Part shown: one piece after another, positions 2,558 through 48,249 of the stretch | How the letters are laid out: each line of letters starts with the position of its first letter | How positions within the stretch are numbered: position 1 is the stretch's first letter | NCBI RefSeq assembly: GCF_000754815.1 | Contig: NZ_KN150747.1 | Coordinates: forward strand, 2,886,896-2,950,895 | Direction of reading: 5' to 3' | DNA from: Yersinia ruckeri ATCC 29473 | GTDB lineage: Bacteria; Pseudomonadota; Gammaproteobacteria; Enterobacterales; Enterobacteriaceae | DNA: 64,000 nucleotides | The notes under the pieces: model-generated | The model's database searches: none | What the model was told of the DNA's origin: nothing | The model's input: only the letters and a program-made list of their open reading frames with translations | Program-made: the position numbers and the translations under genes

Positions 2558-4171
2558 ATGTTCGAACGATTAAAAATCTCTCAGGGATTAATGGGTGTAT
2601 TGGCTCTATTCTGCATTATTCAAATTTTCTCCGGCTCTTGGAGCATTCTTGATGCCTCGGGCACGAATGACCGACTCACGCAAATCTCCTTAGGCTTTAA
2701 CCAAATCATGGCAATGGATAATGCCTATGCTTCAGTTACCGAGATCCGTGAAGAGGTGCTCAAAGACGCACTGATGCTCGCCACACAGCCGCAAGATGCC
2801 AAAGCGCGTCAATCACTCGGTGAATTACGCCAAAATCTGACTGAAGTCGATCAGCAGATGGAGAAGTTTTATCAACTTTCTCAATCAAACCAAAATGAAA
2901 TTGAACGCACTAAAAATGTAAAATCTCTCTATGAAAAAGCACGCGGTGATCTGCTGCAATTGATTATCAGCTTAGAAAATAACGATCTGGTCAAATTCCA
3001 GTCTATTATGCACAACCGCTCATCCACGCATTTTATGTCTGCACTGGATGACGCATCAGCCTATGTGGCCAATTCTATTATTACCCCTGCGGCCAACGCA
3101 GCTCAGGTCAGCTATCGCCAAATGCTGCCGCTTTCGCTCTCCTTTATGTTCGTATTTATTGTCCTGACCGGCGCGGTTTTGGTGTGGATAAGAAAATATG
3201 TGCTGAATAAAATCAATCAGGTTATCGACTATCAAGCGGCCATTGCGCACGGCAATTTATCGATTGAAATTGATGCCAATGGCAACAACGAAATTGGCAA
3301 ACTGATGCAGGGATTGAAGCACATGCGTGATGAACTGGCGAATACGGTCAGCGCGGTGCGTGCAGGTACTCAGAATATCTATACTGGCGTGCAGGAAATT
3401 GCGGCAGGCAACAGCGATCTTTCCAGCCGTACCGAAGAACAGGCCAGCTCGCTTGAAGAAACCGCAGCCAGCATGGAACAGCTTTCTGCTACGGTAAAAA
3501 ACAACTCCGACAGTGCAAATGCAGCAACATCATTGGTAAAACGTGCTTCAAACAGCGCCGTTAACGGCGGTGAAATCACCCGTAAGATGGTGATCACCAT
3601 GAGTGATATTGCCGATAGCTCCCGCAAAATTGGCGATATCACCAGCGTCATCGATGGAATCGCCTTTCAAACCAATATCTTGGCGCTGAATGCAGCAGTC
3701 GAAGCGGCTCGTGCTGGAGAACAAGGCCGTGGATTTGCCGTCGTAGCGGGTGAAGTGCGAAATTTAGCGCAGCGCAGCGCTCAGGCCGCCAAAGAGATTA
3801 AAACTCTGATTGATGCATCTGTCTTGCGCGTCGATCAAGGTAATGATTTGGTTGAAAACGTCAGTGGCGCTATGACTGAAATTGTGACCGCCATTGGACA
3901 AGTCACCGAAACCATGCAAGAAATCTCCAACGCCTCAGAAGAGCAAAGCCGAGGGATCACCCAGATCGCGCAGGCAGTGAATGAAATGGATAAGGTCACC
4001 CAGCAGAATGCAGCATTGGTTGAACAGTCCGCTTCCGCTGCCAGCGCACTCGAAGATCAGGCCGATCGTTTGAATCAAACAGTAGCGATATTCAAACTCG
4101 CCGCGTCAGGTTCTGCGCCAGAGAAAATTCGAGTACAGCCAGATCAGGGCCGCCTGATGGCTGCCAATTGA
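2558..4171 (+). CDS. Methyl-accepting chemotaxis protein
   Basis: A 537-residue Tar/Tsr-type chemoreceptor. A membrane helix lies at about 8-29, a four-helix-bundle periplasmic sensor at 30-188, the second helix at 190-212, HAMP at about 213-265, then the signalling domain with the hairpin tip [20 protein letters not shown] near residues 365-385. Methylation-helix repeats such as [21 protein letters not shown] flank it. It controls the CheA/CheW kinase complex at the cell pole. The C-terminus ends in LMAAN and lacks the NWETF-type pentapeptide that tethers CheR/CheB in major receptors, so adaptation probably depends on neighbours. The ligand cannot be told from the sequence. A FliA promoter lies upstream. 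Confidence 0.92.
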
Positions 4172-4391
4172 AAACCCTGCCACTATACAGCCCCATAGTT
4201 GCCATACTCTGAGTGAAATATGGGTTTTGAGATTCAGGCGTACGAAAACGTACGGCTGAACCTCAAACCCCGATATCAAAGACATGGTGGCCTTCATAGT
4301 CATTTGTACCAATCAGGTATCCGTTGATCGGGATGTCGTGGCACAGCAAGTGGGGGTGCGGACGATTTCCTGGACTCTCAGGAAATAAAAT

Positions 4392-5107
4392 ATGTTTACT
4401 GAAGCGGAGAAAATTCGCGCTATTAAGCTCTACTTCAAATACGGTAAAAACTCGCTCCCGTAGTGCGTGAACGGGGGTTATCCCTCTAACTGCGTGAAGA
4501 AGGCATTACTGTCAGCCATTACCGGGTGATGAGGCCCATGACCGCCGGGGGACTTATTGTTCAGCAACGGTGGACTTATAAAGCCACCACAAAACCAAAA
4601 TCCCGGCCATAACTGGCCCCTAACTTACTGAACTATAAATTTAATCCACCGGGGCCGAATCAGGTGTGGATAAGTGATATAACTGACCTTCTGACTGGTG
4701 AAAGCTGGTTGTATGTGGTTGCCTTTATGGATTTATATTCACGACGTATCGTAGACTGGCACATTGATAAGCGAATGACCGCTGATTTGATATGTAAGGG
4801 GCTGTTTGTCCATACCGAGTGGGGCTCACAATATACGAGCACTCGCTTTCAGATATTGCTCGCAGACGTTGGTCTGAGAAGCTGCATGGGGGATGTTGGT
4901 GCGTACTGGGATAATGCGGTAATGTAGCGTTTTTTGGGTAGCCTGAAATATAAATGGGTACTGCGGGTTAAACAACCTGCCCGTGCGCATATGGGATAGG
5001 ATGTTGCTAATTATATTCGTTATTACAATACAGACAGAGCGCACACCGCCAATGGTGGATTATCACCGATGAGATATGAGCAACTGTCTTTCCGAAATGT
5101 GTCCTGA
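4392..5107 (+). pseudogene. IS3-family element remnant (orfA start and orfB)
   Basis: ATG at 4392 opens an OrfA-like start (MFTEAEKIRAIKLYFKYGK) that stops after 23 residues. From about 4505 to 5107 a second, partly continuous frame encodes an OrfB-like integrase core: NQVWISDITDLLTGESWLYV, MDLYSRRIVDWHIDKRMT, TEWGSQYTS, AYWDNAVM and YYNTDRAHTANGGLSPMRYE. It has in-frame stops at 4610, 4925 and 4988. The stop at 4925 sits exactly where the catalytic Glu of the DDE triad (usually VERFxGSL) should be. Parts of OrfA and of the OrfB N-terminus are deleted. It cannot encode an active transposase. Confidence 0.8.
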
Positions 5108-5492
5108 TTTGATTGACCTGAACACAAACCGCCCGATATGACCGCAAGATAAAAATTGTTCCCGTGGTCGGGTGGCAAGAAGATTGAGTCGATGACATCC
5201 AGCCTCGTTTTGCTGGGACAGAAAAAGTCCCAGCCTTTTACCTGATGATGACCCGATGGATCAGCGTGCCTGTTATTTCGGTTTCCGAATGTCACCGGGC
5301 GAAACGGCAGAGCCTGGCACCGGTTCTTCAGCCATTTTTGTACCGCCCTCCGTCTGATCCACAGGCGCCAAAAACGCGGGCAAGTCGCCCCGCTTAACAC
5401 CATTGATACAAGAACTCATCCTTCAGCAAAAGGAAGAACGGGGCAGGACGCGGCATTACGGGGCAGGAACAGTCAAAAAACAGCGAGGGATA
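5108..5492. other. Unassigned sequence between IS remnant and prophage
   Basis: About 385 bases with richer GC than the prophage start. Short open frames exist on both strands but none has a recognisable domain, a good ribosome site and a sensible length together. A minus-strand segment near 5400-5270 reads like protein (KRGDLPAFLAPVDQTEGG) and may be the debris of another mobile gene. I see no RNA gene or repeat here. Confidence 0.4.
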
Positions 5493-5614
5493 AAAACAAA
5501 AAAACCGCCTCTCGGCGGTTAACGACATACTCATACTACTTTGTTTTACTTATACTATTTTCCATGGTGCCCGGGGCGGGACTTGAACCCGCACAGCCAT
5601 AAGCCGAGGGATTT
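5493..5614. repeat. Prophage attachment site, left copy (attL)
   Basis: A 122-bp segment identical to 19560-19681 (offset 14,067). It contains the 3' part of tRNA-Leu (5565-5614, minus strand, including CCA) and the rho-independent terminator that follows the tRNA. Identity stops inside the anticodon arm, at the base after 5614. The integrase remnant begins about 120 bases inside. This is the footprint of tRNA-targeted site-specific integration; the partial tRNA here is not functional. Confidence 0.93.
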
Positions 5615-5735
5615 AAAAAAATAAAACATAACAAATGTAAATATAAAATTAAATATAATTATATTATATCAATTTTCTAAATGTGAGTATGTTTGGCTAT
5701 ATTTGCGCAGGGTTAGTTTGCGCCGCCATTAAAAA

Positions 5736-6758
5736 TCAGTCATTTTCGAACTTGTCATAGGGATTCAATGTTAGTGCTGCATCCAGATGATCCGGAGCGA
5801 AATGTGAGTAACGCATAGTCATCACAATGCTGCTGTGACCGAGGATTTGTTGCAGTACCAGAATGTTGCCGCCCCCCATCATAAAATGGCTGGCAAATCT
5901 GTGCCGCAGTACGTGAGTACGCTGTCCTTTAGGCAGTTCTATCCCCGCCCTTTTTAGTGCATTTTTGAAAGCATCATAACAGGATGAAAACATTGGCCCT
6001 CGCCGTTTAGGCAAGCGGTCATATAAACGTTTGGATATGGGAACTGTACGATTACGCTTACTTTTAGTCTGAGTAAATGTGACACGATTCAGCATAAGTT
6101 GAGACTGAGAAAGCCCCTGCGCTTCGCTCCATCTCGTACCGGTAGCTAGGCATAAGCGAACCACATTACCCAGGTCTTTATTTTCCAACTCGTCACAAGC
6201 AACCAATAGTCGCTTTATATCGTCAGGATAGAGAAATGCGAGCTCCTGATCTCCCTCTTTAAACTGGCGTAAGCCATCCTGAGGATTATCACCCTCCCAT
6301 TCTCCTAACCGTTTTAACTCTGAAAATACCGCCCGAAGATAAGAATATTCACGGTTAACCGTTGCTTGTTTCGGTGCCGCCTTGCCCTTAGCTTGCCATT
6401 TGCCGTTAAGCCGCTGTTCCCGATAAACAGCAAAAGCGTTCTTATCAAAATCCGTGACCAGTGGATCACCCGGGTCTATTCACCCAACCGTTCACAGATA
6501 GCCTCTAACTTTACCTTTCGGGGTTTCACCCGATGTTAGAGTTTGCCCGTGCATCTCGTACCAACGACTAACCAAATTGCTGAGTTTCAATGTATTACCA
6601 ACCGAAGCCTCAACAACTTGATCTTTTTGCATCATACGACGCTCAAATGAGAGCGCCTCGCCTTTAGTAGCAAACTGCTTGCGAAGCCGTTCACCACGCC
6701 GTCCATTGGGATAGCACTCACAAATCCATTTGCCAGTGGTTAATGTACGAACAGCCAC
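5736..6758 (-). pseudogene. int: P2-like phage integrase, broken
   Basis: Tyrosine recombinase of the P2 type. The N-terminal arm-binding part (6758-6492) begins MAVRTLTTGKWICECYPNGR. The catalytic part down to 5736 shows Arg in TGTRWSEAQGL, a Lys-rich beta-hairpin TKSKRNRTVPI, the HxLR box in THVLRHRFASH, the second His in LGHSSIVM and the nucleophile in MRYSHF. Between them the frame is disturbed twice: an extra C in a C-run near 6523, and an extra 14 bases near 6470-6483 that duplicate GGGTGA. Together they add 15 bases, restoring frame, but the shifted stretch meets a stop at 6492. The protein would be about 340 residues if repaired. The prophage can therefore probably not excise itself. 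Confidence 0.87.
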
Positions 6759-6778
6759 GTAGTTTTCCTCTTATGCCA

Positions 6779-8476
6779 TCAGGCAACAACCAATTCATGT
6801 TCAGGATTGGCATCTAGTTGAGCCTGTCTAGCGAGAGCAAGGCTTTCCCTGTATTCGTGCGCATCAGCTTTTAATGTCCAATGGGTTTCAATATGCATAT
6901 CATCAAGTAGCGATTTAATATCTGACAACGACACACTAAAGAACTCTTTACGCTGATTAACTTTATTAAGCTGAGCCTGTTTGAATTTTCTATGAAGCGC
7001 ATTTTCGAGGGTAGGTGCATCTTCACTATAAATCATGGCGTGAACATCAAACGAGAATGGTACGCTTGCATCACCGAGTTCTTTTACACGATCCATCGGT
7101 TCTAAACGTCTGGTCATACCGATTTTAAATACATCTTCACCAAAGGAACCAATATTACTAATTACATAGACATGGCCAGCTCGTGTTTGTTGAGCCATAG
7201 ATATTGCACGTTGATTTTTTGCTTCTGCCTCTTCATATTTCTTCTGTAGCTCATCTAACTGCTGTTGTAACACAGCCCGCTGTTCATCATTTGCAGCTTG
7301 TAGATCCTTAGTTGCTTTTTCGATAGCCTGCACTATCATTTTTTCTTCTTTTTCAGCATCTTTAATAGCTTTTTCATATTCCTTACGGGCTTTTTCTTCC
7401 TCCCTTAACTGTTCTTTAATTCTTCTTTGTTCTTCTTTTTCTTCTATGAGAATTTCATTTACAGCGACTGCCCATCGAAGCTCATTTAATCTTGCCTGCA
7501 AAAAAGTATCTGTTATTTTTGCATCTCTGAATGCACCACCGTTAAAATTAACAAGCGAAAATGCATCTCTTATTTCTTGTGATAATTTGCCATAATTGTT
7601 ATGGCGGACTTTTGCCATAACAGTATCAACCTTGCCATTAAAGGCATCTAGTATAAAATTGATTGCTGTATTACGTCTGTTTGGCTCAACATACTGGCAG
7701 CTTGCCGCTTTATCAGCGCGCATCAGCGTTCTGGTTAGTTCTCTCGCCTTTTTCAACTCATTGCCAGCATCTTTAAATGAATATTCTTCTGCTAATTCAT
7801 CTAATATACTTCTATTAGGAATAATCCACTCATCTCCATAGCCTTTTATTTTATTTTTCATTGCATTTGCTACTGACTCATAATTTTCAGCAAACTCTTT
7901 AGCCTCATACGCCGAACCTGCTATTTCTTTAGCCCTTTCTTCCGCATTATTCATTAAGCTAACTGCATTATCATTAGCATTACGGATAATTTCCTCAGCT
8001 TTTGTATGGGCCTCATCTAACTTCTCTTTTGCTTTAAGGCGAGTTTCGCGAACTTCGCGAGTAATTGCTATAGCCTCTTCACGCGCATTGCCCAGAGTTA
8101 TTTGAGCTTGTTTATCAGCATCCATTATCGTTATCTCTGAACGCCTGTTTGCTTCATTAATTATTTTTGAAGACTTGTTATAAGCATCATGAAGTAGTTT
8201 TTTAACTGTTTCATTTGCATCTGAAATTATTTTATCTGCAAGTAATTCCGCATTGTAAGTCTCGGTATACTTCCATAAAGGGGCTGTATTTTCCTCTAAC
8301 TCTATATACTTGTTATGTGAGGATGTCAGTTCACTTTTAAGATTTTCGACCTCTAACTTTATCTTTTCTTCATCAACTCTCAGTTGCTTGAGTAATTTCT
8401 GTTTTTTTATTATCAAATAAAACAGATATGGACTAACCACCCCTAAAATAATAAGAACAATAAGTACGAATTCCAT
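6779..8476 (-). CDS. SNIPE-like anti-phage protein: TM, DUF4041 and GIY-YIG nuclease
   Basis: Intact 565-residue protein. A single membrane helix lies at residues 4-23 and a long alpha-helical coiled coil of repeating amphipathic segments at 25-200. A DUF4041 domain follows at about 205-345 (motifs LLDELAEEYSFKDAG-like, NRRNTAINFILDAFNGKVD, KLSQEIRDAF, LRWAV), then a charged coiled coil at 345-425. A GIY-YIG/T5orf172 nuclease lies at 433-525 (HVYVISN, FKIGMTR, Arg in MDRVKEL, Glu in TLENALHRKF). This is the architecture of SNIPE, a membrane-anchored nuclease that cuts phage DNA during injection. The start has a strong GGGAGG site. It lies 20 bases after the repressor gene and is probably co-transcribed with it, so it should be expressed in the lysogen. 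DUF4041/GIY-YIG proteins are known; activity here is inference. Confidence 0.85.
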   Translation of the reverse strand: MEFVLIVLIILGVVSPYLFYLIIKKQKLLKQLRVDEEKIKLEVENLKSELTSSHNKYIELEENTAPLWKYTETYNAELLADKIISDANETVKKLLHDAYNKSSKIINEANRRSEITIMDADKQAQITLGNAREEAIAITREVRETRLKAKEKLDEAHTKAEEIIRNANDNAVSLMNNAEERAKEIAGSAYEAKEFAENYESVANAMKNKIKGYGDEWIIPNRSILDELAEEYSFKDAGNELKKARELTRTLMRADKAASCQYVEPNRRNTAINFILDAFNGKVDTVMAKVRHNNYGKLSQEIRDAFSLVNFNGGAFRDAKITDTFLQARLNELRWAVAVNEILIEEKEEQRRIKEQLREEEKARKEYEKAIKDAEKEEKMIVQAIEKATKDLQAANDEQRAVLQQQLDELQKKYEEAEAKNQRAISMAQQTRAGHVYVISNIGSFGEDVFKIGMTRRLEPMDRVKELGDASVPFSFDVHAMIYSEDAPTLENALHRKFKQAQLNKVNQRKEFFSVSLSDIKSLLDDMHIETHWTLKADAHEYRESLALARQAQLDANPEHELVVA

Positions 8477-8496
8477 TAACTCAACCTCCCATATTA

Positions 8497-8865
8497 CTAG
8501 TTATTGTTCGACTTCAATTTAGGCTTCGATTGCGCGAACGCATCGCCAACCGCCTGTATATTTAGCCTTGCCGAGTCATCCATTGCTCGGTAATTCTCTA
8601 CTAGTTTCAGCTCTTCTGTAGAGATAGTATCTGGAGGGGTTCGTTTCCCAGTCAGTATATACATGACGTCTAAACCATACTGAGCATTCAACAATGCGAG
8701 TGTGGCAGCATCAGGTACGGTTTCCCCTCTCTCATATTTGCCCCAAGTTCTGGTTGAAACACCAAAATTTGTCGCCATAGCCTCTTGGCTTTCACCCGTT
8801 TTTTCCCTTTCTTCACGCAGTCGTGCGCCAATTAGGAATAATAATTCCTCTTTTTTGTTTGGCAT
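8497..8865 (-). CDS. Prophage repressor (XRE-type, C/CI-like)
   Basis: A 122-residue protein with an XRE helix-turn-helix at about residues 12-65 (LREEREKTGESQEAMATNFGVST, then WGKYERGETVPD). The C-terminal tail suits dimerisation and there is no LexA-type peptidase domain. Its position, divergent from the early genes and directly upstream of the SNIPE-like gene, is that of the immunity repressor in P2-like phages. It should bind the 60-base gap to its right and keep the early genes silent. The missing peptidase domain argues against RecA-driven cleavage. Confidence 0.82.
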   Translation of the reverse strand: MPNKKEELLFLIGARLREEREKTGESQEAMATNFGVSTRTWGKYERGETVPDAATLALLNAQYGLDVMYILTGKRTPPDTISTEELKLVENYRAMDDSARLNIQAVGDAFAQSKPKLKSNNN

Positions 8866-8925
8866 AGGAATAATGCTTCCTTGAATTGTGTTGTACAGGA
8901 ACTTAGTGGATCACAATATACCATT
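8866..8925. promoter_or_regulatory. Divergent early/repressor control region
   Basis: Sixty bases separate the divergent repressor and first early gene. TTGTAC at 8891-8896 with AT-rich CAATATA about 17 bases downstream is a weak candidate rightward promoter. No clear repeated operator could be picked out by eye. Function is inferred from position. Confidence 0.45.
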
Positions 8926-9117
8926 ATGAAACAAGTCGAACATGATCAACGCTCGCGATTACCGAAAGGAATCGCCTCAAAAAATCCTACCCCCATGTGT
9001 TTATCTGATGGTGAATGCTCTGAATTAGAAGCACTTGCAGCAAAAGAAAGTCGTTCAATTTCCAGTATGGCCCGTTTGGTTTACTTGCGCGGGATCGCTG
9101 CTATTCAGGCTGATTGA
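8926..9117 (+). CDS. Small early phage protein, possible ribbon-helix-helix
   Basis: 63 residues from ATG 8926 (an upstream in-frame TTG at 8881 would overlap the control region). The second half, SDGECSELEALAAKESRSISSMARLVYLRGI, has the spacing of a ribbon-helix-helix DNA-binding fold. It is the first gene to the right of the repressor, a usual place for a regulatory protein. No closer identity was recognised. Confidence 0.6.
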   Translation: MKQVEHDQRSRLPKGIASKNPTPMCLSDGECSELEALAAKESRSISSMARLVYLRGIAAIQAD

Positions 9118-9129
9118 TAAGGGGAAGTT

Positions 9130-9333
9130 ATGGGTAATGTCACCATTAATATCACCGTACCCACGGGCTATGTCTCTCTGAGAGAATATGCCGTAATGAC
9201 TGGTATCCCGTTCGCTATCTGCCTGGGAATGGTGCGCGATGGGCGGATTATTATTCGTCCGAAAATTAAAGCCGGTGACAAGGGTGAAGTTAACTTGGTC
9301 GCTATATTGAAAAATGCCATAGCCAATAGTTAG
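9130..9333 (+). CDS. Cox/Apl-like phage regulatory protein
   Basis: 67 residues. The core VSLREYAVMTGIPFAICLGMVRDGRIIIRPKI has the winged-helix pattern of P2-type Cox/Apl proteins, which act both as excisionases and as repressors of the lysogenic promoter. A good AGGGG-type site (AAGGGGAAGTT) precedes the ATG. The gene is in the position where cox lies in P2-like phages. Assignment rests on fold pattern and position, not on full-length recognition. Confidence 0.6.
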   Translation: MGNVTINITVPTGYVSLREYAVMTGIPFAICLGMVRDGRIIIRPKIKAGDKGEVNLVAILKNAIANS

Positions 9334-9344
9334 GGGAAAATACA

Positions 9345-9551
9345 ATGCATGCCTTAAGTGTTATCAGCCGTAATGCATGGTTTTATCGCGGGTTCGTGAT
9401 CAATTTCCGGCGCAGAACGGCTGTTAATTTACTTAACCGTTATGAGGTTTTTTTGGGCGATCAGTCTTTTGGTCTGTTTGATTCACAAGCGCAAGCAACT
9501 GGTTTTATTAATCAGTTGTACACCGAACGTGAGACGGGAGTAGCAGCATGA
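9345..9551 (+). CDS. Small phage early protein of unknown function
   Basis: 68 residues with a good ribosome site (AGGGGAAAA) 6 bases before the ATG. Rich in aromatic and basic residues, ending GVAA; no domain recognised. Its stop overlaps the next start (ATGA), so it belongs to the early operon. Confidence 0.65.
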   Translation: MHALSVISRNAWFYRGFVINFRRRTAVNLLNRYEVFLGDQSFGLFDSQAQATGFINQLYTERETGVAA

Positions 9552-9814
9552 AATCACTTTGCCTACAGATAGCTAACGCCATACTGCTAACTTATATGAC
9601 CGATATGGGAGAGTTAACCCGACGTGCAATAGAGAAAAATGGTGTCCTTTCCCTTAAAGCAAATCTTCACGCCCGCCAGAAAAAAGCCATCACCAGCAAT
9701 ACCATTGCGGGCTTAAGTATGATTACCGCCATAGCGTGGCAGTTAGGTGAAAACGAATTAGCGACTTTCCATCAACTGAAACTTCAACGCAGCAATTTCG
9801 TGAGTCAGGCGTGA
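9548..9814 (+). CDS. Phage early protein of unknown function
   Basis: 88 residues, mostly helical, translationally coupled to the previous gene by a 4-base overlap. It resembles the small conserved proteins that lie between cox and gene A in P2/Fels-2-type prophages (the segment ARQKKAITSNTIAGLSMI is typical). No function is known to me. Confidence 0.65.
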   Translation: MKSLCLQIANAILLTYMTDMGELTRRAIEKNGVLSLKANLHARQKKAITSNTIAGLSMITAIAWQLGENELATFHQLKLQRSNFVSQA

Positions 9815-9845
9815 TACCTCAACTTTTCAATGAAGAGGTGCCAGC

Positions 9846-10001
9846 ATGCCAGGGCAACTAATTGAATTGACCGGAGGCGCATTAATCATGCTGGCCGTGC
9901 TTATTTGGATTGCTGTTTTGTCTGTCCGCGCCGCAATTCGTGATCACCGCCACCGCACCAGTATCAAGAAAGAAGAAGTAGCACGCAAAGCGCGTCTGTA
10001 A
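9846..10001 (+). CDS. Small membrane protein of the prophage
   Basis: 51 residues from ATG 9846, preceded by GAGGTGCC. One strongly hydrophobic helix at residues 11-27 (ALIMLAVLIWIAVLSV) is followed by a basic tail (RDHRHRTSIKKEEVARKARL). It sits in line with the early genes. A single-span inner-membrane protein with a cytoplasmic basic tail is the simplest reading; function unknown. Confidence 0.6.
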   Translation: MPGQLIELTGGALIMLAVLIWIAVLSVRAAIRDHRHRTSIKKEEVARKARL

Positions 10002-10041
10002 GTTTAAACCGTATTAATTGTTCTCTCGTGAGGTGCGAATA

Positions 10042-10317
10042 ATGGGGCAAATAAATACCGATGAATCACCACTCACAATGCAGGAATGGAATCAAAAAGT
10101 AGGTTTATGGCATTTAGACCGCATAAAGGAACTGTTTAAAAAAGATCCAGATGAAGAGTTTGAGCGACGTTTGGAGTCATTAAGCAGGGGTAAGACCAAA
10201 GGTATTATTTATTATGCCGCTGGGATAAAGAAAGACAGCCACAAAAGAAAAGCGGTGCGTAAAGCAGCGTTGGTTCTATGGATTGATTTGAATTCAATAC
10301 CAAAAGACTTGTTATAA
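10042..10317 (+). CDS. Phage early protein of unknown function
   Basis: 91 residues from the ATG at 10042, chosen because GAGGTG lies 7 bases before it; a TTG at 10018 in the same frame has no such site. The protein is highly charged (HLDRIKELFKKDPDEEFERR, KKDSHKRKAVRKAA) and probably all helical. No domain recognised. Confidence 0.6.
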   Translation: MGQINTDESPLTMQEWNQKVGLWHLDRIKELFKKDPDEEFERRLESLSRGKTKGIIYYAAGIKKDSHKRKAVRKAALVLWIDLNSIPKDLL

Positions 10318-10399
10318 AGAAATAACGTTTTAGAGGGTTATTAAATATGGCGCATTTATCGCGTCGGGATTCCTATTATCTAAAGTTAAGGATTCAAAT

Positions 10400-10597
10400 A
10401 TGTCGAGTAGGAAAATTAAAAATGTTGATTTATTCAATGATGCCTTGATAAGTGAGCGCAGGAAGCAAACAATACTGACTTCTGCGCTTCTGGAAAATCT
10501 GGCAAATATCATTATTGCTCGTGCTTTATGCGTTAAAGAATCAGTGGAATTACTGCGCCAGGAATCCGATAAAATCCAAAATCAAATAAATCAGTAA
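10400..10597 (+). CDS. Small phage protein of unknown function
   Basis: 65 residues with an AAGG site before the ATG. Helical, basic at the start and Gln/Lys-rich at the end. It precedes the dam gene by 7 bases and is likely co-transcribed with it. Nothing more specific can be said. Confidence 0.55.
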   Translation: MSSRKIKNVDLFNDALISERRKQTILTSALLENLANIIIARALCVKESVELLRQESDKIQNQINQ

Positions 10598-10604
10598 GCG
10601 GCTA

Positions 10605-11429
10605 ATGACAATAAATCGCTCTCCGCTGAAGTGGGCCAGTTCAAAGGCTCGTATTATGCCAACCTTACTTCAACATTTGCCAACCGGTAAACGATTGGTA
10701 GAACCGTTTGCTGGTTCCTGTTCTGTTATGCTGAATACGGATTATGATGAATATCTGATAACAGATATCAATGATGATCTGATTAACTTCTATGAAATAG
10801 CGAAAAGAGAAACGAGCGACTTAATCAATGTGGCTTCCTCACTGTTTCTTACGGCTAATTCCGACGAACAATATTATATTTTCCGCAAAATATTTAATGC
10901 ACGAAACCGTGATGATATATCCAGAGCAGCAATATTCCTTTACCTAAATCACCATTGTTTTAATGGTATTTGTCGCTATAACCAACAAGGGCAATTTAAT
11001 GTCCCCTATGGCAAATACAAAGCGCCTTATTTCCCCGAAGCAGAGATCCGTTTCTTTGCTGAAAAAGCCAAGAAAGCGACTTTCTTATGTTGTGATTTCT
11101 CCGAAGCACTGGAAATGGCTGTTACGGGGGATGTGATTTATTGCGATCCGCCTTATATCCCGGTATCCAGCACTGCTGACTTTACCCATTATCACACCGA
11201 TGGTTTTAGCGCTGATCAGCAATTTCGTTTAGCCCGCCTACTGGCAAGGGCCGCTGAAAATGGCTGTCATGTTGTTGCCTCCAATAGCGATACCTCTATC
11301 AGTCGCGATCTCTATAACCGTTTCACCCTTCACTCGATTACGGCTCCGCGCTCTATCAGTTGTAAAAGTGATGGCAGAAAAAGTATTGGGGAAATTATTG
11401 CGACAATTCCGGCGCAATTATATGACTGA
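10605..11429 (+). CDS. dam: Phage DNA adenine methylase (Dam-like)
   Basis: A 274-residue D12-class N6-adenine methyltransferase. N-terminal LKWASSKARIMPTLLQHLP and LVEPFAGSCSV form the S-adenosylmethionine pocket (motif I) and VIYCDPPYIP is the DPPY catalytic motif near residue 180. The family methylates the adenine of GATC. In P2-like prophages such genes lie just before gene A, as here; the stop overlaps the likely start of gene A. The expected motif I form is KWxGGK; here the glycines are replaced (KWASSK), as in several phage Dam proteins. It seems intact and may protect phage DNA or alter host methylation. Confidence 0.85.
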   Translation: MTINRSPLKWASSKARIMPTLLQHLPTGKRLVEPFAGSCSVMLNTDYDEYLITDINDDLINFYEIAKRETSDLINVASSLFLTANSDEQYYIFRKIFNARNRDDISRAAIFLYLNHHCFNGICRYNQQGQFNVPYGKYKAPYFPEAEIRFFAEKAKKATFLCCDFSEALEMAVTGDVIYCDPPYIPVSSTADFTHYHTDGFSADQQFRLARLLARAAENGCHVVASNSDTSISRDLYNRFTLHSITAPRSISCKSDGRKSIGEIIATIPAQLYD

Positions 11430-13723
11430 GCATGCCCGTGGCCGTATCACCCCCACATCACCGCTGCCTTATCTGGGCAACGGTGATGTTTCTATTGAAT
11501 GGGAGCACTCATGGAATGCCCCGCGCCCAGCCATTGGTGGCTACCAATCTTTAGCGCCGGTCGCAGTGGTAGTAAAACCAAAATCTCACCCGCTGGTTAT
11601 TCGCTATGTGAAGCGGCTGAATGCATTGGGGTATACAGAATTACGGGAGCCTAACCAGACATTACTTAAAATGCGCAGGGAACGCGCCGAGCTTGAGCGC
11701 CAAGCCTACTTGCGTGACAAACAACAATGGGCGGATACGGCGGAAGGTATAGAGGCCCGTATTGACGAGCAGCCTATTTTTATTAAGTCTCACTTTCAAA
11801 ATAAAATTAGATGGTTACGTGAAAATCATGGCGATAAACATACCAATGCATTCTTAACCGGCACCGGCAAGAACGCATTGTTACGTCTGGATGCCGTGCG
11901 CCAATACCAAGGCGTTAGCAAGGGTCATATTTCTGAGTTAATGGCTTACTTTCAAGGTATCTATAGCCACCTTGCCGAGCTGACTAAACGCCGAGTTAAG
12001 TCGCTGGCGAATGATGTTGCTGGCCGTATTAATGAAATGTTCTGCACTGAGGTATCAACACCCACAGAAGAAACCCGCATTTTATCCGATGCCGAGTTAT
12101 TGACCATTTATCGCAATATTGCGCTTGAAGTGTGGTCTTTACGGGTCAGGCCGTCGCACTGGCGTGAATTGGGGCCGAAGCCCGGCCAGCCAGATAAGCC
12201 TGTTGATCGCACAATCTATTATTCTGCTATTGCCCGGCTGATTAATGCGGATTGGTGGGAACGTAAATTGTGGCGGCTGCGTAATGACTGGCGAGAAAGT
12301 CAGTTACGCGCCGCTGGCATGATCCACAAGCGTGCCGCACCCTATGTCAGTAAAGAGGCATTGGCCGACTGGATAGAGCAAAAGCGCCGCAACCGGGAGT
12401 TCTTCAAGCGGCATGAATTGACTGATGGTGAGGGTAACACCGTTTCTTTAGAGGCAATGGTGGACGCCAGTATTAGCAATCCCACTATTCGCCACCATGA
12501 GTTAATGGCCTGCATGAAAGGGATCGAATTGGTTGCACAGGCGCGTGGTGATGTTGGGGTGTTGCCCGTCTAAATACCACGCCAACAACCAAAGCGGCCA
12601 CGCTAACCCAAAATGGAATCACAGCACGCCACCACAGGCGCAAGCCTATCTCACCAAGCTGTGGGCCAACATCGGTTCAAAACTGGGCCGTAAAAATCTG
12701 CGCATTTATGGTTTTCGTGTTGCCGAGCCGCATCATGACGGTACACCGCACTGGCACTTACTGCTATTTATGAAACCGCAAGAACGCCACGCTATCACTG
12801 AGATTATGCGCGCCTATGCCGTCAAAACTGATCGCGCCGAATTAGGTAAGCGTACCAGCGCCCGGTTTACCGCTAAACGGCTGGATCCAAAGAAAGGCAG
12901 TGCTACCGCCTATCTCGCTAAATACATTAGTAAAAACATTGATGGTTACGCGCTGGATGGCGAACTAGACCATGAAACCGGCAAACTGCTGAAAGAAACG
13001 GCCCGCTTCGCTATGGCTTGGGCGTCACGCCACCGCATCCGCCAATATCAGCCAATAGGCACACCACCGATTACCGTCTGGCGGGAACTGCGCAATCAAC
13101 TGGTCACTACGCTCAAGATTTCCGGCACCTATCAGCGCGGCAAGCCGTTATTGGTCGATCCGGCAATGGATGCCGTCACCGCCGCCGCAGATGTGGGCTG
13201 TTTTGCTACCTACATAATGAAGCAAGGCGGCGTACTGATCCCGCGTGAGGATTGCACCGTGCGCATCGCCTATCAGGACAATGAGCAGCCAACGCCTACG
13301 GCGAAACCACCGAGAAGATTTACGGCATCTATTCCCCCGCTTTTGGGCGAGGCGTCGCGCATATGCACCCGTCTAAAAAGCTGGAAGATTGTCGCCCGTA
13401 AAAAGGCGAAACCCGCCGTTACCGTGGGGGTTGATGTTTTTCAGGACGGCCCCGCCGTCCCTTGGAGTTCTGTCAATAACTCTCCGCGAGAGCAAAAAAT
13501 AAGCGAACCGGACGAGGCTATAGACAGAACATCAGAAGAAAAAATCATCGATTTCGCCACGATCACCGACTCAGAACGTCGAGCATTGCTGCGCAGGATA
13601 AAAAGCGCCCCGGCACCAACGATTAAAACCAACTCATTGACGCCAGCCGAGGAATTGTCACGCCAGGTATCAGCCGAAAAGGCCGCCCAGGGCAAGAAAA
13701 AACTGCACAACTGGCACCCGTGA
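11422..13723 (+). pseudogene. P2 gpA-like replication initiation endonuclease, frameshifted
   Basis: Rolling-circle initiator of the P2 gene A family (about 770 residues if repaired). The first part runs from ATG 11422 (overlapping the dam stop) to a premature stop at 12573. The rest continues in another frame to 13723, beginning at PSKYHANNQSGHANPKW. The junction reads GDVGVLP where the family has GDV-x-V-F-x-T-x-T-x-PSKYHA, so about 13-14 bases have been lost near 12560. The HUH metal site (GTPHWHLLLF) and the paired tyrosines (YLAKYISKNIDGY) are in the second part. Without a joined protein the phage cannot start replication. Confidence 0.85.
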
Positions 13724-13953
13724 CAACAAAAATCCGCGATTTTGCGGATTCAATCGGGCTTTCCATCAGCGAACAGCAGGCGCAATCACTCGCTTGCGGC
13801 GCAACGTTGACCATCGGCGGCCAGAACTGGCGGGCAAGAGGGGATTGTTGTTTGTACCAGTGCCAACCAACTACCGCCCAACGGGTATTTAGCGTAATGA
13901 GCCGGGTGGCGAAATTACGAGAGGGAGTAAACCGTGAAAGTCACCAATATTAA
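13720..13953 (+). CDS. Small phage protein downstream of gene A
   Basis: 77 residues starting with GTG at 13720, which overlaps the gene A stop (GTGA). It has an N-terminal helix (FADSIGLSISEQQAQSLACG) and a short basic beta segment (IGGQNWRARGDCCLYQ). No function recognised; conserved small proteins of this kind follow gene A in P2/Fels-2-type phages. Confidence 0.55.
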   Translation: MTTKIRDFADSIGLSISEQQAQSLACGATLTIGGQNWRARGDCCLYQCQPTTAQRVFSVMSRVAKLREGVNRESHQY

Positions 13954-14164
13954 TTACACCGACACCATTTGCACATTGTCAGCCGATGAACAGCGAGTTG
14001 CTCAAATGCTTGGCGATGCATGGAATCAATATTTACAGCTTTCGATTGAACACCCCTGTGAACGTGATGAGTTCTGCCGAGCCATTCACGATTGCCAGAG
14101 GATCATATTAGCCCGCCCGGCAATTCGCGGGCTGGCTGAAAAAGGGCAGGGGTACAAAAAATGA
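13934..14164 (+). CDS. Small phage protein of unknown function
   Basis: 76 residues from GTG 13934, with GAGGGAG 6 bases upstream; it overlaps the previous gene. Acidic, helical protein (LSADEQRVAQMLGDAWNQYL). Its stop overlaps the next ATG, so these three small genes form one translationally coupled row. Confidence 0.55.
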   Translation: MKVTNINYTDTICTLSADEQRVAQMLGDAWNQYLQLSIEHPCERDEFCRAIHDCQRIILARPAIRGLAEKGQGYKK

Positions 14165-14502
14165 CAACCGCAAGTGACCGTAAACGCGCCCAGCGCCAGC
14201 GTGATAAAGAGTTGGGTATAACTACGCTTACCCTGCGTTTGGATGCGCAGGAGTTGGCTATGGTGCAGGAAGGATGCGAACAGCGCCGCATTACTCGCCA
14301 GCCCTATGAGGTGACAGAGTATTTAGCCAGCCTGATTCGCCAGGATAATAAGCTACTGCATAAACAACTTGCCGAGTTGAAGAAAAGTAGCTGTACACGG
14401 TGCGGGGATACGTTGCCAGGTGATAAAGCTGGTTGCTGTTTGCAGGGGGATTCGGAGTGTTGGCAGACGTTGGGGTATAGGAAGTTGATGTTAGGGTATT
14501 GA
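14161..14502 (+). CDS. Phage protein with C-terminal Cys cluster
   Basis: 113 residues. A basic N-terminus (RKRAQRQRDKELG) is followed by a short segment resembling ribbon-helix-helix proteins (TTLTLRLDAQELAMVQEGCE), a helix, and a cysteine cluster CTRCGD...GCCLQGDSEC that could bind zinc. It is the last recognisable phage-type gene; directly after it the P2 order breaks off and no late genes (ogr, D, U, T or capsid genes) follow. Probably a DNA-binding early protein; this is inference. Confidence 0.6.
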   Translation: MTTASDRKRAQRQRDKELGITTLTLRLDAQELAMVQEGCEQRRITRQPYEVTEYLASLIRQDNKLLHKQLAELKKSSCTRCGDTLPGDKAGCCLQGDSECWQTLGYRKLMLGY

Positions 14503-14558: not shown

Positions 14559-15410
14559 TCACCTAACATATCTGGATGACTTTATTGAATAGCTTTCACT
14601 ATCTAGCTTTGATTCAAAAATATTTTTTATACCCACATCTCTTGCAATAGCTAGTAAACATTTTCTCTGGAAATCTGGCATCTTTTCACCTATATGTAGA
14701 GATTCAATTGTATCTGGATCATACTTTATTAATGTGTTCCCTTTCGAATGAGAATATCTTATTTCGTTCTCATATGCCCAGTCTGAATTTTTTGACTCTA
14801 TTATTCTTAAAATATATCTGTCAGTTGCTTCTTTATTTTTATTTATAAAATGTTGCATGGCAAAATCAATTAAATCGATGACTGGATAATTATCAACATA
14901 CTTAACAATGTATGGTCAAAAAGTTTTTCCTTCATCCAGGTCGAAAATTTTTTCTTTATTAAACTTTAGTGCAAAGCCCCGAAGACCATTAGCATAGTGC
15001 CCCCACATTAGACGATTTTCTAAAGGAGGTTTTTTATTGATATCTTTCGAGTTAGAAACAAAACAACACACACCAAGTTCATTATAATTATTAATGATTG
15101 CATCAAATGCCAACTTTATGACTGACAATAATTTATTTCTTAGTATATCAGACTTACCATTAACAAAATATTCTGTTAAGGCTGATAACGTATCATCTTT
15201 ATTTTTAATTCCCAAATAACTATTTATTTCTCCATTCTTATTTATGGCACTGATAATACTTACCAATTTGCCATCACTTATCTCTTTTATTTCTTGCTTA
15301 ATTCTACCTTCAAAAGGATCATTAAATTCCGATATTTTTGAAAACCAAAGAGATGTGTTATGAAGGGATGAAAGTTAATTGTCATTTAACGTAAAAAATT
15401 TATATAGCAT
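14559..15410 (-). pseudogene. DUF2971-family gene with two in-frame stops
   Basis: Read from ATG 15410 the frame gives MLYKFFTLNDN, a TAA at 15375-15377, then LSSLHNTSLWFSKISEFNDPFEG, the N-terminal motif of DUF2971. It continues through ENRLMWGHYANGLRGFALKF, meets a TGA at 14916-14918, and goes on in the same frame to SSRYVR at 14559. The length is 283 codons with both stops read through and no frameshift. Two independent nonsense changes make it a dead gene. It lies 15 bases after its neighbour of the same family and is much more AT-rich than the phage genes, typical of late-acquired cargo. DUF2971 has no established function known to me. Confidence 0.8.
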
Positions 15411-15425
15411 TTGGTTATCACTTAG

Positions 15426-16215
15426 TTAAATTATGATTAAATCAACCTTATTTTTATTCTTTACGGCTTTTTTTAATGGCATGTTAATATTAATACCATG
15501 AACAAAATGTTTTATATGTTCATAATCTCCTTGGCAGCCGACGATAATTGATTTTAGAGCACCATTAGGTATTTTTAATTTATTTTCATTGTTGACGCAT
15601 AGGTTGTTGAATTCGCCATTTTTGTTAGCTAACTTAGTTTTAGCAATAATCCTAAACTCATCTTCTACTATTAAGGATGTTTTTTCTTAAAACAAATAAC
15701 ATTGGTTCATTGCGTATTAATACGCTAAAATAAGCCGATTCATCATTATAATCAACTTGCCATGCAGAGCCAAAAACCTCATTATTAACATCAAATTCTA
15801 GACATATCCCTTTATGTACATTGGCATAACGCTCCCACATTTCAATATTATTATTCCTAAGCGTTAGGCAGTACACTCTAAATAGTTCAGCGTAAGCAAC
15901 CCCTTGACCATAAGATATTTTTTCGTATATTTCCTGAATGTTATCAACTGAACTAATAATCGACTCATCAACGCCTAACAACCTAAGTTGCTTCTCAATT
16001 CCTTTTCTTAGAAAACTATTTTCTGTTAGCTTTGGAAATACAGGTTTCATATCCCATAAATCTTCAAAATCATTGGGATTAGAGCAATATATCGTGTTAT
16101 CTAACAAAGTTTGTCTTAGATAATCTTCATCCTTGCTATCTTTATTAAATGGCTGATAATGATACAAACTGGTAACCCCGGTAAAAATAGCTTGCTGTGC
16201 TTGCAATTCTTTCAT
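15426..16215 (-). pseudogene. Second DUF2971-family gene, frameshifted in an A-run
   Basis: ATG 16215 opens 185 residues with SLYHYQPFNK, TIYCSNPNDFEDLWD and MWERYANVHKGICLEFD, the family signature. At a run of six A (T on the plus strand, 15680-15685) the frame breaks. One A fewer would give LRKTSLIVEDEFRIIAKTK and continue through LKIPNGALKSIIVGCQGDYE to a stop at 15426. So a single-base slip in a homopolymer separates the C-terminal third. The repaired protein would be about 262 residues. It is upstream of the other DUF2971 gene and probably shared its transcript. Confidence 0.8.
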
Positions 16216-18205: not shown

Positions 18206-19043
18206 TCAGGACACCGGAATAACCTGTCTCCACTTTTCTTCATGCAGGCAAGGCGGTAAACCACCGTTGTTCGTATGAGGGCGATAAACGTTGTAATAAC
18301 CATTTATCCACTGGTTTATATCGCGTACTGCATGGCTAAAATCACTATAACCACCTTTCGGAAGCCATTCACTTTTAAGGCTGCGAAAGACTCTTTCTAT
18401 CGGCGAATTATCCAGGCAATTCCCTCTGCGACTCATACTTTGCATTACCCCATCACGCCAGAGTAATTTCCTGTATTTATTGCTTTTATATTGAACCCCT
18501 TGATCTGAATGAAACAGCAGACGGCCATCACGAGGTCGTGTTTCCAGAGCGTTACGCAAAGCCCGGCACACCGCATCAGCATCAGCGGTTAATGAGAGGG
18601 CTGAACCGATAATCCGGCGTGAATATAAATCAATAACAAGCGCGAGATAGCACCATCTGTCCTGCAGGCGAATAAAACTGATATCACCACACCAGACGCG
18701 GTTTGGTGTGGCGGGGTTAAACTGCCGGTTCAATAAGTTTGGTAATGCCGGACTGTTGTCTTCATTTACCCGGTAGCGATGTTTAACAGGCTGGCGACTA
18801 GTCAGCCCGCATTCCTGCATCAGTCGTCGCGCCAGCCATCGACCTGCATTAACGCCACTCTGGCGCAATATCTGACTGATTGCCCGACTACCTGCAGCAC
18901 CACGACTGAGAGTCATGGAATTCTCTCACCCGACTTCGTAATTCAATTCTTTGTGCATTAACAGGACGCTTTACCTGCGCGTAATAAACGCTACGGTGAA
19001 TACCGAATAAATGACAAAGGATCTGCACAGGCCAACTTTGCTT
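18206..19043 (-). pseudogene. IS3-family OrfB (transposase), frameshifted
   Basis: The open part from ATG 18916 down to 18206 carries the rve core: [13 protein letters not shown] (first Asp), [13 protein letters not shown] (second Asp) and [15 protein letters not shown] (Glu), ending [17 protein letters not shown]. The N-terminal part, SWPVQILCHLFGIHRSVYYA to RSRVREFHD, is in another frame upstream (19043 to about 18922). One extra base near 18920 explains this, and it is not the usual -1 slip between orfA and orfB. The element is therefore probably not able to move on its own. Confidence 0.75.
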
Positions 19044-19055
19044 TTAGCCGTGTGA

Positions 19056-19373
19056 TTAGCGCGATAACTTTCCGGGGGCTTCGCTCATCAGCACGGCAGC
19101 CTGCTTTAGTATTTCTTTTTCCATCTCAAGACGCTTTATCTGTGCTTTAAGCTGCTGAATTTCGCGTTGTTCAGGAGTAATGGCATTGCCAACGGGCTCA
19201 ATACCTTGAATTTCCTGCTTATACAGCCGTATCCATTTGCGCAAATGGTCAGGGTTGAGTTCGAGCGCCTGAGCGACTTCCCGTACATCTCGCTGGTATT
19301 CAACAACCTGTTCGATAGCTTCGAGTTTGAACTCTGGGGAAAATGTGCGTTTAATCCGACGATTTTTGATCAT
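19056..19373 (-). CDS. IS3-family OrfA
   Basis: 105 residues. Helix-turn-helix at about 12-60 (FSPEFKLEAIEQVVEYQRDV, VAQALELNPDHLRKWIR) and a leucine-zipper segment REIQQLKAQIKRLEMEKEIL near the end, the standard OrfA layout for binding the terminal repeats and dimerising with the OrfAB transposase. It begins 70 bases inside the right end of the element. It looks intact, but its OrfB partner is frameshifted. Confidence 0.85.
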   Translation of the reverse strand: MIKNRRIKRTFSPEFKLEAIEQVVEYQRDVREVAQALELNPDHLRKWIRLYKQEIQGIEPVGNAITPEQREIQQLKAQIKRLEMEKEILKQAAVLMSEAPGKLSR

Positions 19374-19559: not shown

Positions 19560-19681
19560 AAAACAAAAAAACCGCCTCTCGGCGGTTAACGACATACTCA
19601 TACTACTTTGTTTTACTTATACTATTTTCCATGGTGCCCGGGGCGGGACTTGAACCCGCACAGCCATAAGCCGAGGGATTT
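19560..19681. repeat. Prophage attachment site, right copy (attR)
   Basis: Identical to 5493-5614 over 122 bp. This copy is joined to the 5' part of tRNA-Leu and so rebuilds a complete tRNA gene and its terminator. Integration thus left the tRNA functional. Confidence 0.93.
19570..19587 (-). terminator. Terminator of the pgsA-tRNA transcript
   Basis: On the minus strand AACCGCC, loop GAGA, GGCGGTT, then a run of T. It follows tRNA-Leu by 45 bases. The same terminator is duplicated at 5503-5520 inside attL. Confidence 0.9.
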
Positions 19682-19717
19682 TAAATCCCTTGTGTCTACC
19701 GATTTCACCACCCGGGC
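19632..19717 (-). tRNA. leuZ: tRNA-Leu (anticodon UAA)
   Basis: 86 bases including encoded CCA, 5' end GCCCGGGTGG pairing with CCGGGC before the CCA, anticodon loop with TAA in GGGATTTAAAATCCC, long variable arm, and T arm GCGGGTTCAAGTCCCGC. It is third in the Gly-Cys-Leu row after pgsA, as in E. coli glyW-cysT-leuZ. Its 3' part is the prophage attachment core. Confidence 0.95.
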
Positions 19718-46686: not shown

Positions 46687-46761
46687 GGTATTAATTCCTT
46701 TAAATATGTTTCGGCTAAGGTTTAGGCTGATTGCCTACGGCTTTAATTACCGTCCACATAT

Positions 46762-46788
46762 TTATCGGCAACAACACTGATAGCTTTA
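46762..46788 (-). promoter_or_regulatory. Sigma-28 promoter of flagellin copy 1
   Basis: On the minus strand TAAA (46788-46785), a 15-base spacer, and a perfect GCCGATAA (46769-46762). It is 76 bases before the start codon. Confidence 0.95.
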
Positions 46789-46835
46789 ATGAATTATTCA
46801 ATTTTCTCACGAATAACCCACTGAATCGCAGAGAC

Positions 46836-46862
46836 AAAAAAGCCCCCGCCAAAGCGGAGGCT
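46836..46862 (-). terminator. Terminator of flagellin copy 2
   Basis: On the minus strand AGCCTCCGC, loop, GCGGGGGCT followed by TTTTT (46862 to 46836); one G-T type mismatch in the stem. It separates copy 2 from copy 1. Confidence 0.88.
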
Positions 46863-46884
46863 TGATAGCATTGCCAAGCTGAAA

Positions 46885-48174: not shown

Positions 48175-48249
48175 GGTATTAATTCCTTTAAATATGTTTC
48201 GGCTAAGGTTTAGGCTGATTGCCTACGGCTTTAATTACCGTCCACATAT

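What the first reader, a model, noticed from the sequence alone, without database searches (positions are those of the whole stretch)
6779..8476. SNIPE-type membrane nuclease carried as a repressor-linked cargo gene of a P2-like prophage
Seen: one membrane helix, long repetitive coiled coil, DUF4041, second coiled coil and a complete GIY-YIG/T5orf172 nuclease in one intact 565-residue protein, 20 bases downstream of the XRE repressor and in the same direction. Known: this domain order is that of SNIPE, which sits in the envelope and cuts incoming phage DNA. Inference: shared transcription with the repressor would make it a lysogenic-conversion defence gene, kept while the rest of the prophage decays. 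The int-to-repressor interval would then be a cargo site worth surveying in related prophages. The long N-terminal coiled coil may set the distance between membrane and nuclease or contact an injection channel.
Basis: partly seen in the sequence, partly recalled or inferred. Interest (0 to 1): 0.78.

Follow-up and report, generated by a model that had tools for sequence, protein, structure and literature searches.

The report
Prophage-borne SNIPE anti-phage membrane nuclease
A broken prophage in a fish-pathogen bacterium still carries an intact gene for a known kind of membrane-anchored enzyme that cuts the DNA of invading viruses, sitting in a slot beside the prophage's repressor where related viruses carry other, sometimes defence-like, genes.

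Summary
Window 6779-8476, MINUS strand, encodes an intact 565-aa protein: N-terminal membrane helix, long helical region, DUF4041, second helix, GIY-YIG/T5orf172 nuclease with the catalytic Glu kept. It starts 20 bases after a 122-aa XRE repressor in a 14.1-kb P2-like remnant at tRNA-Leu in Yersinia ruckeri; int and gene A are broken and no structural gene was found among the ORFs scanned. It belongs to PD-lambda-1/SNIPE, already published as an injection-site nuclease. Six relatives (61-67% identical) all follow a P2-type CI gene or its 3' remnant; 19 more distant relatives had no CI match in the flanks read. In E. coli the gene and the cox-cI-SNIPE-int block are equally frequent (163 of 5426 genomes each). 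In four settings SNIPE is intact while the prophage is largely gone. The cI-int interval varies in 186/P2-like prophages: wider than 80 bp in 22 of 50 loci, strong PADLOC matches in 5 of 19 scanned. Such a hotspot is in print for Vibrionaceae and may already be pictured for E. coli. Added here: a P2-linked SNIPE lineage with a long, divergent N-terminus and repeated survival after prophage decay. Transcription with the repressor is likely but untested. New member of a known kind.

The parts
6779..8476 (-). SNIPE-family membrane nuclease, 565 aa (TM 5-23, helical 2-206, DUF4041 274-329, helix 323-432, GIY-YIG/T5orf172 434-526, catalytic Glu E491)
8497..8865 (-). XRE-type (HTH_31) repressor, 122 aa, 20 bases upstream of SNIPE, same strand
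8477..8496 (-). 20-base gap with Shine-Dalgarno GGGAGG; too short for a separate promoter plus terminator
5736..6758 (-). P2/186-type integrase, interrupted by two in-frame stops (open pieces 6492-6758 and 5736-6206)
9130..9333 (+). Cox-like excisionase/repressor, divergent from the repressor
10605..11429 (+). P2-like early-region DNA adenine methylase, open frame
11260..13723 (+). P2-like replication gene A, split between two frames (11260-12573, 12533-13723)
5493..5618 (.). attL-side copy of the 126-bp direct repeat (99.2% identical)
19560..19685 (.). attR-side copy of the repeat, overlapping the 3' end of tRNA-Leu(taa) 19632-19717 (-)

Best explanation
It is a SNIPE-family (PD-lambda-1) inner-membrane-anchored nuclease carried in the repressor-integrase slot of a P2-like prophage. 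Shown here by sequence: membrane helix, DUF4041, nuclease domain with the catalytic Glu, 20-base linkage to the repressor, location in a decayed P2-like element, recurrent presence of the same lineage in that slot. Inferred: it is transcribed with the repressor while the prophage is silent, sits in the inner membrane with its nuclease in the cytoplasm, and cuts the DNA of incoming phages during injection, probably by contacting their tape measure protein through DUF4041, with the divergent N-terminal 120 residues as adapter to a host or phage partner. It has outlived the rest of the prophage because it benefits the bacterium.
For: Family: Pfam and PADLOC. SNIPE E414, essential for defence, aligns with E491 and is Glu in all 9 proteins aligned; GHVY and KIGMTRR or KIGLTRR blocks kept. 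Order cI - SNIPE - int in 813R9, KP12 and L047 with 20, 20 and 19 bases between cI and SNIPE (L047's CI is 49% and its int 66% identical to 813R9's). E. coli: P2-lineage gene body in 163 of 5426 genomes, cox-cI-SNIPE-int block at >=80% coverage in 163 of 5426. Retention: a CI 3' fragment lies directly upstream of open SNIPE in G322, G282 and a Pantoea dispersa plasmid; in G322 a 36-aa int fragment remains, in G282 and Pantoea none was found in the stretch read. Specificity: CI or its fragment directly upstream in 6 of 6 relatives of 61-67% identity, and in 0 of 19 more distant relatives. Constraint in residues 121-565: pN 0.08-0.20 against pS 0.70-0.80 in 7 pairs (dS at or near saturation). 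Other contents of the slot include known or candidate defence genes.
Against: No expression, localisation or plaque data for this protein. Promoter-like sites in 5400-9400 are no more than in shuffles (8 found, 9.7 expected). The PADLOC models align only from residue 119-121; residues 1-30 and 31-120 are 33% and 22% identical to the PhiR26_1 SNIPE where aligned and the DUF4041 region 16%. The structure model is weak in the nuclease (pLDDT by tens 43-79) and has no PDB match at E <= 0.001. Strain comparison does not show selection: L046 has one nonsynonymous base change in SNIPE and few elsewhere before 13930. Three of the four remnants keep only a 3' piece of the repressor gene, so repressor-linked expression cannot be general. 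The window's repressor is not of the CI type of its relatives. In the control, 9 of the 19 distant loci have only 1.5-kb flanks and one is a 3.7-kb contig, only CI-type repressors and this integrase type were sought, and L011 had a weak int match 2.6 kb away. Reference SNIPE acted on siphoviruses, on none of the BASEL myo- or podoviruses.
Confidence: 0.78

Rival explanations
1. It is a superinfection-exclusion gene aimed mainly at phages of the prophage's own kind (P2-like myoviruses), blocking their DNA entry rather than serving broad anti-siphovirus defence.
For: Linked to the immunity region in 813R9, KP12, L047 and the window; the N-terminal region differs between carriers.
Against: Reference SNIPE spared all BASEL myoviruses; the gene is kept where repressor and integrase are reduced to fragments or gone, where prophage self-protection no longer applies.
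Confidence: 0.08
2. It is a relic: open only because decay is recent, with no present function.
For: The same remnant in L045 and L046 is nearly identical (3 and 47 mismatches over 8.7 kb; 36 of the 47 lie beyond 13960), so little time separates these strains; methylase, Cox and repressor are also open.
Against: Open SNIPE in three further, more degraded remnants in other genomes; amino-acid constraint between lineages.
Confidence: 0.1
3. It is a GIY-YIG protein with a housekeeping or mobile-element role on cytosolic DNA rather than defence.
For: Pfam's best hit is named MUG113, a family name that is not defence-specific.
Against: Membrane helix, DUF4041 and PD-Lambda-1 match; published SNIPE with the same parts is toxic to its host when the membrane helix is removed.
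Confidence: 0.04

Closest known systems
SNIPE / PD-lambda-1 (Saxton et al., Nature 2026, PMC13190303; Vassallo et al. 2022, PMC9519451)
   Same: N-terminal membrane helix, DUF4041, alpha-helix, GIY-YIG nuclease in the same order; catalytic Glu conserved (E414 = E491).
   Different: 565 aa against 500 for the PhiR26_1 copy, used here as reference because it has E223, W257 and E414 where the paper numbers them; N-terminal region about 76 residues longer; residues 1-120 hardly alike; DUF4041 region 16% identical; Arg where the reference has W257, a position whose change to Arg (with I308V) raised contact with the Bas14 tape measure protein.
cI-int defence hotspot of K139-like P2-related phages in Vibrionaceae (Rousset et al. 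2022, PMC9122126)
   Same: Variable genes, some defence, between repressor and integrase of a P2-related prophage.
   Different: Here in 186/P2-like prophages of Enterobacteriaceae, with SNIPE, a GmrSD+HEPN pair, HEC-01 and PDC candidates among the contents.
Felsduovirus prophages at E. coli hotspot 29, rybB (Hochhauser et al. 2023, PMC10121019; author name recalled)
   Same: P2-related prophages with diverse defence systems at dedicated positions. rybB lies next to rcdA (recalled), and rcdA is next to int in the E. coli loci opened here, so these are probably the same prophages.
   Different: Which positions they are is in a supplementary figure that I did not see; the text held does not name the repressor or PD-lambda-1.
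P2 hotspots 1 (between replication endonuclease and portal) and 2 (fun) (PMC9519451)
   Same: Defence cargo of P2-like prophages.
   Different: Other positions in the genome; the window's cargo follows the repressor.
Escherichia phage vB_EcoM-813R9 and Klebsiella phage KP12, 'chromosome segregation ATPase'
   Same: 67% identical protein, same slot, 20 bases after cI.
   Different: CI-type repressor (198 aa) and an uninterrupted integrase; the window's repressor is a 122-aa HTH protein of another type.

Membership tests
SNIPE (PD-lambda-1) | Single membrane helix near the N-terminus | tested here: met
   Hydropathy 2.71 at residues 5-23, next best 0.79
SNIPE (PD-lambda-1) | DUF4041 in the middle | tested here: met
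   PF13250 E 3.8e-13, 49.5 bits against cut-off 27
SNIPE (PD-lambda-1) | C-terminal GIY-YIG nuclease with catalytic Glu | tested here: met
   T5orf172 E 1.7e-15; E414 aligns to E491, Glu in all 9 proteins aligned; fold not confirmed by the structure search
SNIPE (PD-lambda-1) | Family-level profile match | tested here: met
   PADLOC PD-Lambda-1 E 1.4e-116, residues 121-556 only
SNIPE (PD-lambda-1) | Inner-membrane location, phage DNA cut during injection, tape measure contact | not testable with these tools
   Known for the E. coli protein only
P2-like prophage | int, repressor/Cox switch, dam, gene A in P2 order | tested here: met
P2-like prophage | Structural (late) genes | tested here: not met
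   None among the ORFs scanned between gene A and attR: a remnant, not a whole prophage
cI-int cargo slot | Different cargo at the same place in related prophages | tested here: met
   CI found in 50 of 60 loci; interval >80 bp in 22 (21 with a same-strand ORF of 50 aa or more), <=80 bp in 28; of 19 scanned, 5 with strong PADLOC matches, 6 weak, 8 none
Lysogenic-conversion gene | Expressed from the repressor transcript in the lysogen | not testable with these tools
   20-base gap with its own Shine-Dalgarno; 186 record annotates a pL lysogenic operon with cI and int

The most novel reading that the evidence does not exclude
The cI-int interval of 186/P2-like prophages of Enterobacteriaceae is a general repressor-coupled defence slot beside the two P2 hotspots named in print, and one SNIPE lineage has specialised in it: its N-terminal 120 residues are exchanged or driven to diverge as the host or phage entry partner changes, its DUF4041 naturally carries a basic residue (R334; Lys in five relatives) where laboratory selection for better tape-measure contact produced one, and it is repeatedly domesticated by bacteria once the prophage rots away.
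Probability: 0.4. Interest if true: 0.6.

Novelty: new member of a known kind. Interest (0 to 1): 0.45.

Why it matters
SNIPE tells self from non-self by place (the injection site) rather than by sequence. A prophage lineage of SNIPE that is tied to the repressor gene, has a long variable membrane-side region and survives prophage loss offers natural variants for testing which part sets phage range. It also points to a short, easily surveyed genome interval where unknown defence genes may be found: of 19 wide intervals scanned with PADLOC here, 14 had no strong match to a known or candidate system.

Tried and rejected
1) That the order repressor-SNIPE-int is a coincidence of this window: rejected, seen in 813R9, KP12, L047 and in E. 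coli. 2) That all SNIPE relatives sit in this slot: rejected, 0 of 19 more distant relatives had a CI match; the PhiR26_1 copy lies in a lambdoid early region and ES18's near the tape measure gene. 3) Using strain variation to show selection: uninformative. 4) Structure search: model too uncertain, no PDB match at E <= 0.001; phmmer against PDB sequences found none at E <= 0.01. 5) Promoter and terminator scan: about as many sites as in shuffles. 6) Near-identical copies in E. coli: megablast of 4300-14000 found two short matches. 7) Papers on a cI-int slot in Enterobacterales: five searches, listings seen; passages then read in PMC9122126, PMC9519451 and PMC10121019. Only PMC9122126 names a cI-int hotspot (Vibrionaceae). 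This is no proof of absence: PMC10121019 has a supplementary figure on E. coli Felsduovirus defence positions that I did not see, and Brenes and Laub 2025 is not held.

Rows left out of counts: the survey took 60 of 127 genomes with an integrase match, one region per genome from the top of the list (weakest 4.9e-114), leaving out matches with stops inside or at contig ends (e.g. G334, G140, G324, G304, G061, G352, G076, G379, G228, G240, G012, G230); the tool did not list all matches. Ten of 60 had no CI by my HMM (L079, L080, L081, L084, L087, L097, L100, L101, L102, L107) and are not in the 22/28 split; L084 is cut by its contig end. Of the 22 wide intervals, L118 has no ORF of 50 aa, and L070 (63-aa ORF) and L129 were not scanned with PADLOC. 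In one search, L049 (same as L013) and the other distant SNIPE loci (L016-L042) were not included; L010, L138 and L143 have broken frames.

Full report
WHAT IS THERE. The minus strand of window 6779-8476 encodes an uninterrupted 565-residue protein; the plus strand in the frame read has many stops. Pfam finds DUF4041 (274-329, E 3.8e-13), T5orf172 (434-526, E 1.7e-15) and MUG113 (450-526, E 1.9e-19), all above the curated cut-offs. PADLOC's PD-Lambda-1 models match with E 1.4e-116 and 4.4e-114, from residue 119-121 to 556. Residues 5-23 are the only strongly hydrophobic stretch. AlphaFold2 on an alignment of 10 sequences gives helices 2-63, 65-118, 122-206, a small domain, a helix 323-432 and a mixed domain after 435; mean pLDDT is 72.2 and pTM 0.36 and the nuclease region is poorly modelled, so only the layout should be used. 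A PDB fold search gave no match at E <= 0.001. Whether the long helices are coiled coils was not tested.

HOST AND ELEMENT. The genome has 3.77 Mb in two contigs. An 18-kb stretch of the second contig is 100% identical over its length to Yersinia ruckeri plasmid NZ_CP071804.1 and others, so I take the host to be Y. ruckeri. The gene lies in an element bounded by 126-bp direct repeats, 99.2% identical, at 5493-5618 and 19560-19685; the right one overlaps the 3' end of a tRNA-Leu(taa) gene at 19632-19717. The element (14.1 kb) carries a P2/186-type integrase with two in-frame stops, SNIPE, a 122-aa HTH repressor, Cox, an adenine methylase and gene A split between frames, then small ORFs with PHROG matches (13934-14502), broken DUF2971 pieces (14559-16215) and transposase pieces (18206-19373; rve and HTH_Tnp_1 domains, IS3 type by recall). 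No capsid or tail family appeared among the ORFs scanned. Two IMG/VR records hold the same remnant with 3 and 47 mismatches over 8.7 kb; SNIPE is identical in one and has one nonsynonymous change in the other, and 36 of the 47 mismatches lie beyond 13960.

LINK TO THE REPRESSOR. Repressor and SNIPE are on the same strand with 20 bases between them; a GGGAGG lies 8 bases before the SNIPE ATG. There is no room for a separate promoter and terminator in that gap. The annotated 186 record shows why such a place would be expressed in lysogens: pL transcribes a lysogenic operon with cI and int. For the window this is inference; the promoter scan did no better than shuffles.

RELATIVES IN THE SAME SLOT. 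Phage records 813R9 (E. coli) and KP12 (Klebsiella) have cox / cI - SNIPE - int with a 67% identical protein. The IMG/VR prophage L047 (61%) has CI (49% to 813R9's), SNIPE 6001-7725 and int (66%). Gaps between cI and SNIPE are 20, 20 and 19 bases. In E. coli, 163 of 5426 genomes hold the P2-lineage SNIPE body, 162 its first 356 bases, and 163 hold at least 80% of the cox-cI-SNIPE-int block. The counts agree, though I did not match the lists one by one. A looser DNA search finds some SNIPE relative in 433 of 5426.

SURVIVAL OF SNIPE. In an Enterobacteriaceae sample 36 of 392 genomes had some match, but only the window's genome and two others (G322, G282; 62%) had the lineage at full length. In a sample of the order, 10 of 394 had a match at E <= 1e-90, the window's own and nine at 50-57%, two of these with stops inside. 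In G322 a CI 3' fragment (62% to 813R9 CI) lies directly upstream and a 36-aa piece of int downstream, with permease and porin genes around; in G282 a CI 3' fragment lies upstream, no int was found in 18 kb, and tRNA-Leu(taa)-tRNA-Cys is next to it. On a Pantoea dispersa megaplasmid (one of three such records opened) CI residues 158-198 precede SNIPE among ordinary genes. SNIPE is open in all of these. So in four settings the nuclease has outlived the prophage. As a control, none of 19 more distant relatives had a CI match in the flanks read; 9 of these loci have only 1.5-kb flanks, one contig is 3.7 kb, other repressor types were not sought, and L011 had a weak int match 2.6 kb away. Residues 121-565 show pN 0.08-0.20 against pS 0.70-0.80 in 7 pairs. 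Against a strong reading: in the window other genes are open too, and in three of the four remnants the repressor gene is itself only a fragment, so SNIPE there must have another promoter.

THE SLOT. Of 14 int neighbourhoods opened in annotated records, two had no gene between repressor and int (186, ESSI2_ev040); six E. coli had a 63-aa ORF; two (KMi012, 67-1, same protein accessions) a GmrSD-domain plus HEPN pair, matching PADLOC NsnA and PD-T4-2_A strongly and PD-T4-2_B weakly (1.4e-8); two E. coli had unknown 329/323-aa proteins; 4LV2017 an unknown 349-aa protein; Yersinia phage 201.16 a 185-aa WYL protein. In the genome survey I took 60 of 127 genomes with an integrase match; CI was found upstream in 50; the interval exceeded 80 bp in 22 (21 with a same-strand ORF of at least 50 aa) and did not in 28. 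Of 19 scanned with PADLOC, five have strong matches (PDC-M11 pair, PDC-M18 pair, PDC-S20 twice, HEC-01 pair), six weak ones (four WYL, two PDC-S48) and eight none. Most of these PADLOC names are candidates, not proven systems. Rousset et al. (PMC9122126; passages and section 12 read) already reported a cI-int defence hotspot in Vibrionaceae K139-like phages. PMC9519451 (passages) reported two other P2 hotspots. PMC10121019 (passages) reports 109 E. coli genomes with Felsduovirus prophages in rybB that carry diverse defence systems at dedicated positions; since rybB lies beside rcdA (recalled) and int lies beside rcdA in the E. coli loci opened here, that paper's supplementary figure may already show this slot.

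HOW IT PROBABLY WORKS. [quoted passage not shown] abstract, sections 5, 8, 9 and 29 and passages read). The window protein has the sequence features needed. Two differences bear on range. First, residues 1-120 of five P2-lineage proteins (813R9, KP12, L047, G322, G282) are 20-30% identical to the window while 121-530 are 64-79%, with a step near residue 120; the reference protein lacks about 76 residues of this region. The divergence is not uniform: G322 and 813R9 are fairly alike there (pN 0.19 against 0.35-0.55 in the other six pairs). This fits an adapter under diversification, as the SNIPE authors propose for N-termini in general. Second, reference W257 aligns with R334 here and with Lys in those five relatives; W257R with I308V raised contact with the Bas14 tape measure protein. 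The DUF4041 alignment is only 16% identical but ungapped at this place. Both are predictions, not results.

VERDICT. Observation confirmed; interpretation right in kind, with the SNIPE mechanism and a cI-int hotspot already in print. What is added is a P2-linked SNIPE lineage, its close tie to the repressor-integrase slot, and its repeated survival after prophage decay.

Noticed in passing
G000 contig C2 80241-81101 (L052; L133 10185-11687): The same strain carries a second, 500-aa SNIPE-type protein on its plasmid, 46% identical over residues 270-552 and with a different N-terminus, beside a P-loop NTPase gene and not far from HEPN, TniQ/TniB and Mu-type transposase genes.
   Followed up: partly
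L130 (G000:C1:2060000-2072000) 3089-6268, minus strand: A second P2-like remnant in the same chromosome has CI (53% to 813R9's), then a 478-aa ORF 26 bases on with no Pfam or PADLOC match, then a broken integrase: another unknown occupant of the same slot.
   Followed up: partly
L044 2050-3579 (phage ES18 gp19): In phage ES18 a SNIPE-like gene lies just upstream of the tape measure gene gp21 (gp20 between them), the protein class that SNIPE is reported to contact.
   Followed up: no
L077 3390-5405; L073 1407-3112; L072 3839-5413: Contents of the cI-int slot with no PADLOC match: two-gene (313+347 aa, 341+226 aa) and single (524 aa) units that are candidates for new defence genes.
   Followed up: partly
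L056 2060-3049, L057 2050-3021: E. coli slot occupants of 329 and 323 aa with sub-threshold Pfam matches to a predicted membrane protein (DUF2207 C-terminal) and to rod or coiled proteins; no PADLOC match.
   Followed up: no
window 14559-16215, minus strand: A DUF2971 gene broken into at least three pieces inside the element; an annotated DUF2971 gene lies just outside int in E. coli STEC307 (L064).
   Followed up: no
window 45397-49650, minus strand: Three tandem ORFs with 198-base gaps: the proteins of the first two are identical (429 of 429 residues), the third matches at 389 of 425; not identified.
   Followed up: partly
L063 (E. coli BL21-RIPL): A common laboratory strain carries a decayed 186/P2-like prophage whose slot holds only a 63-aa ORF, convenient as an empty-slot control.
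   Followed up: no
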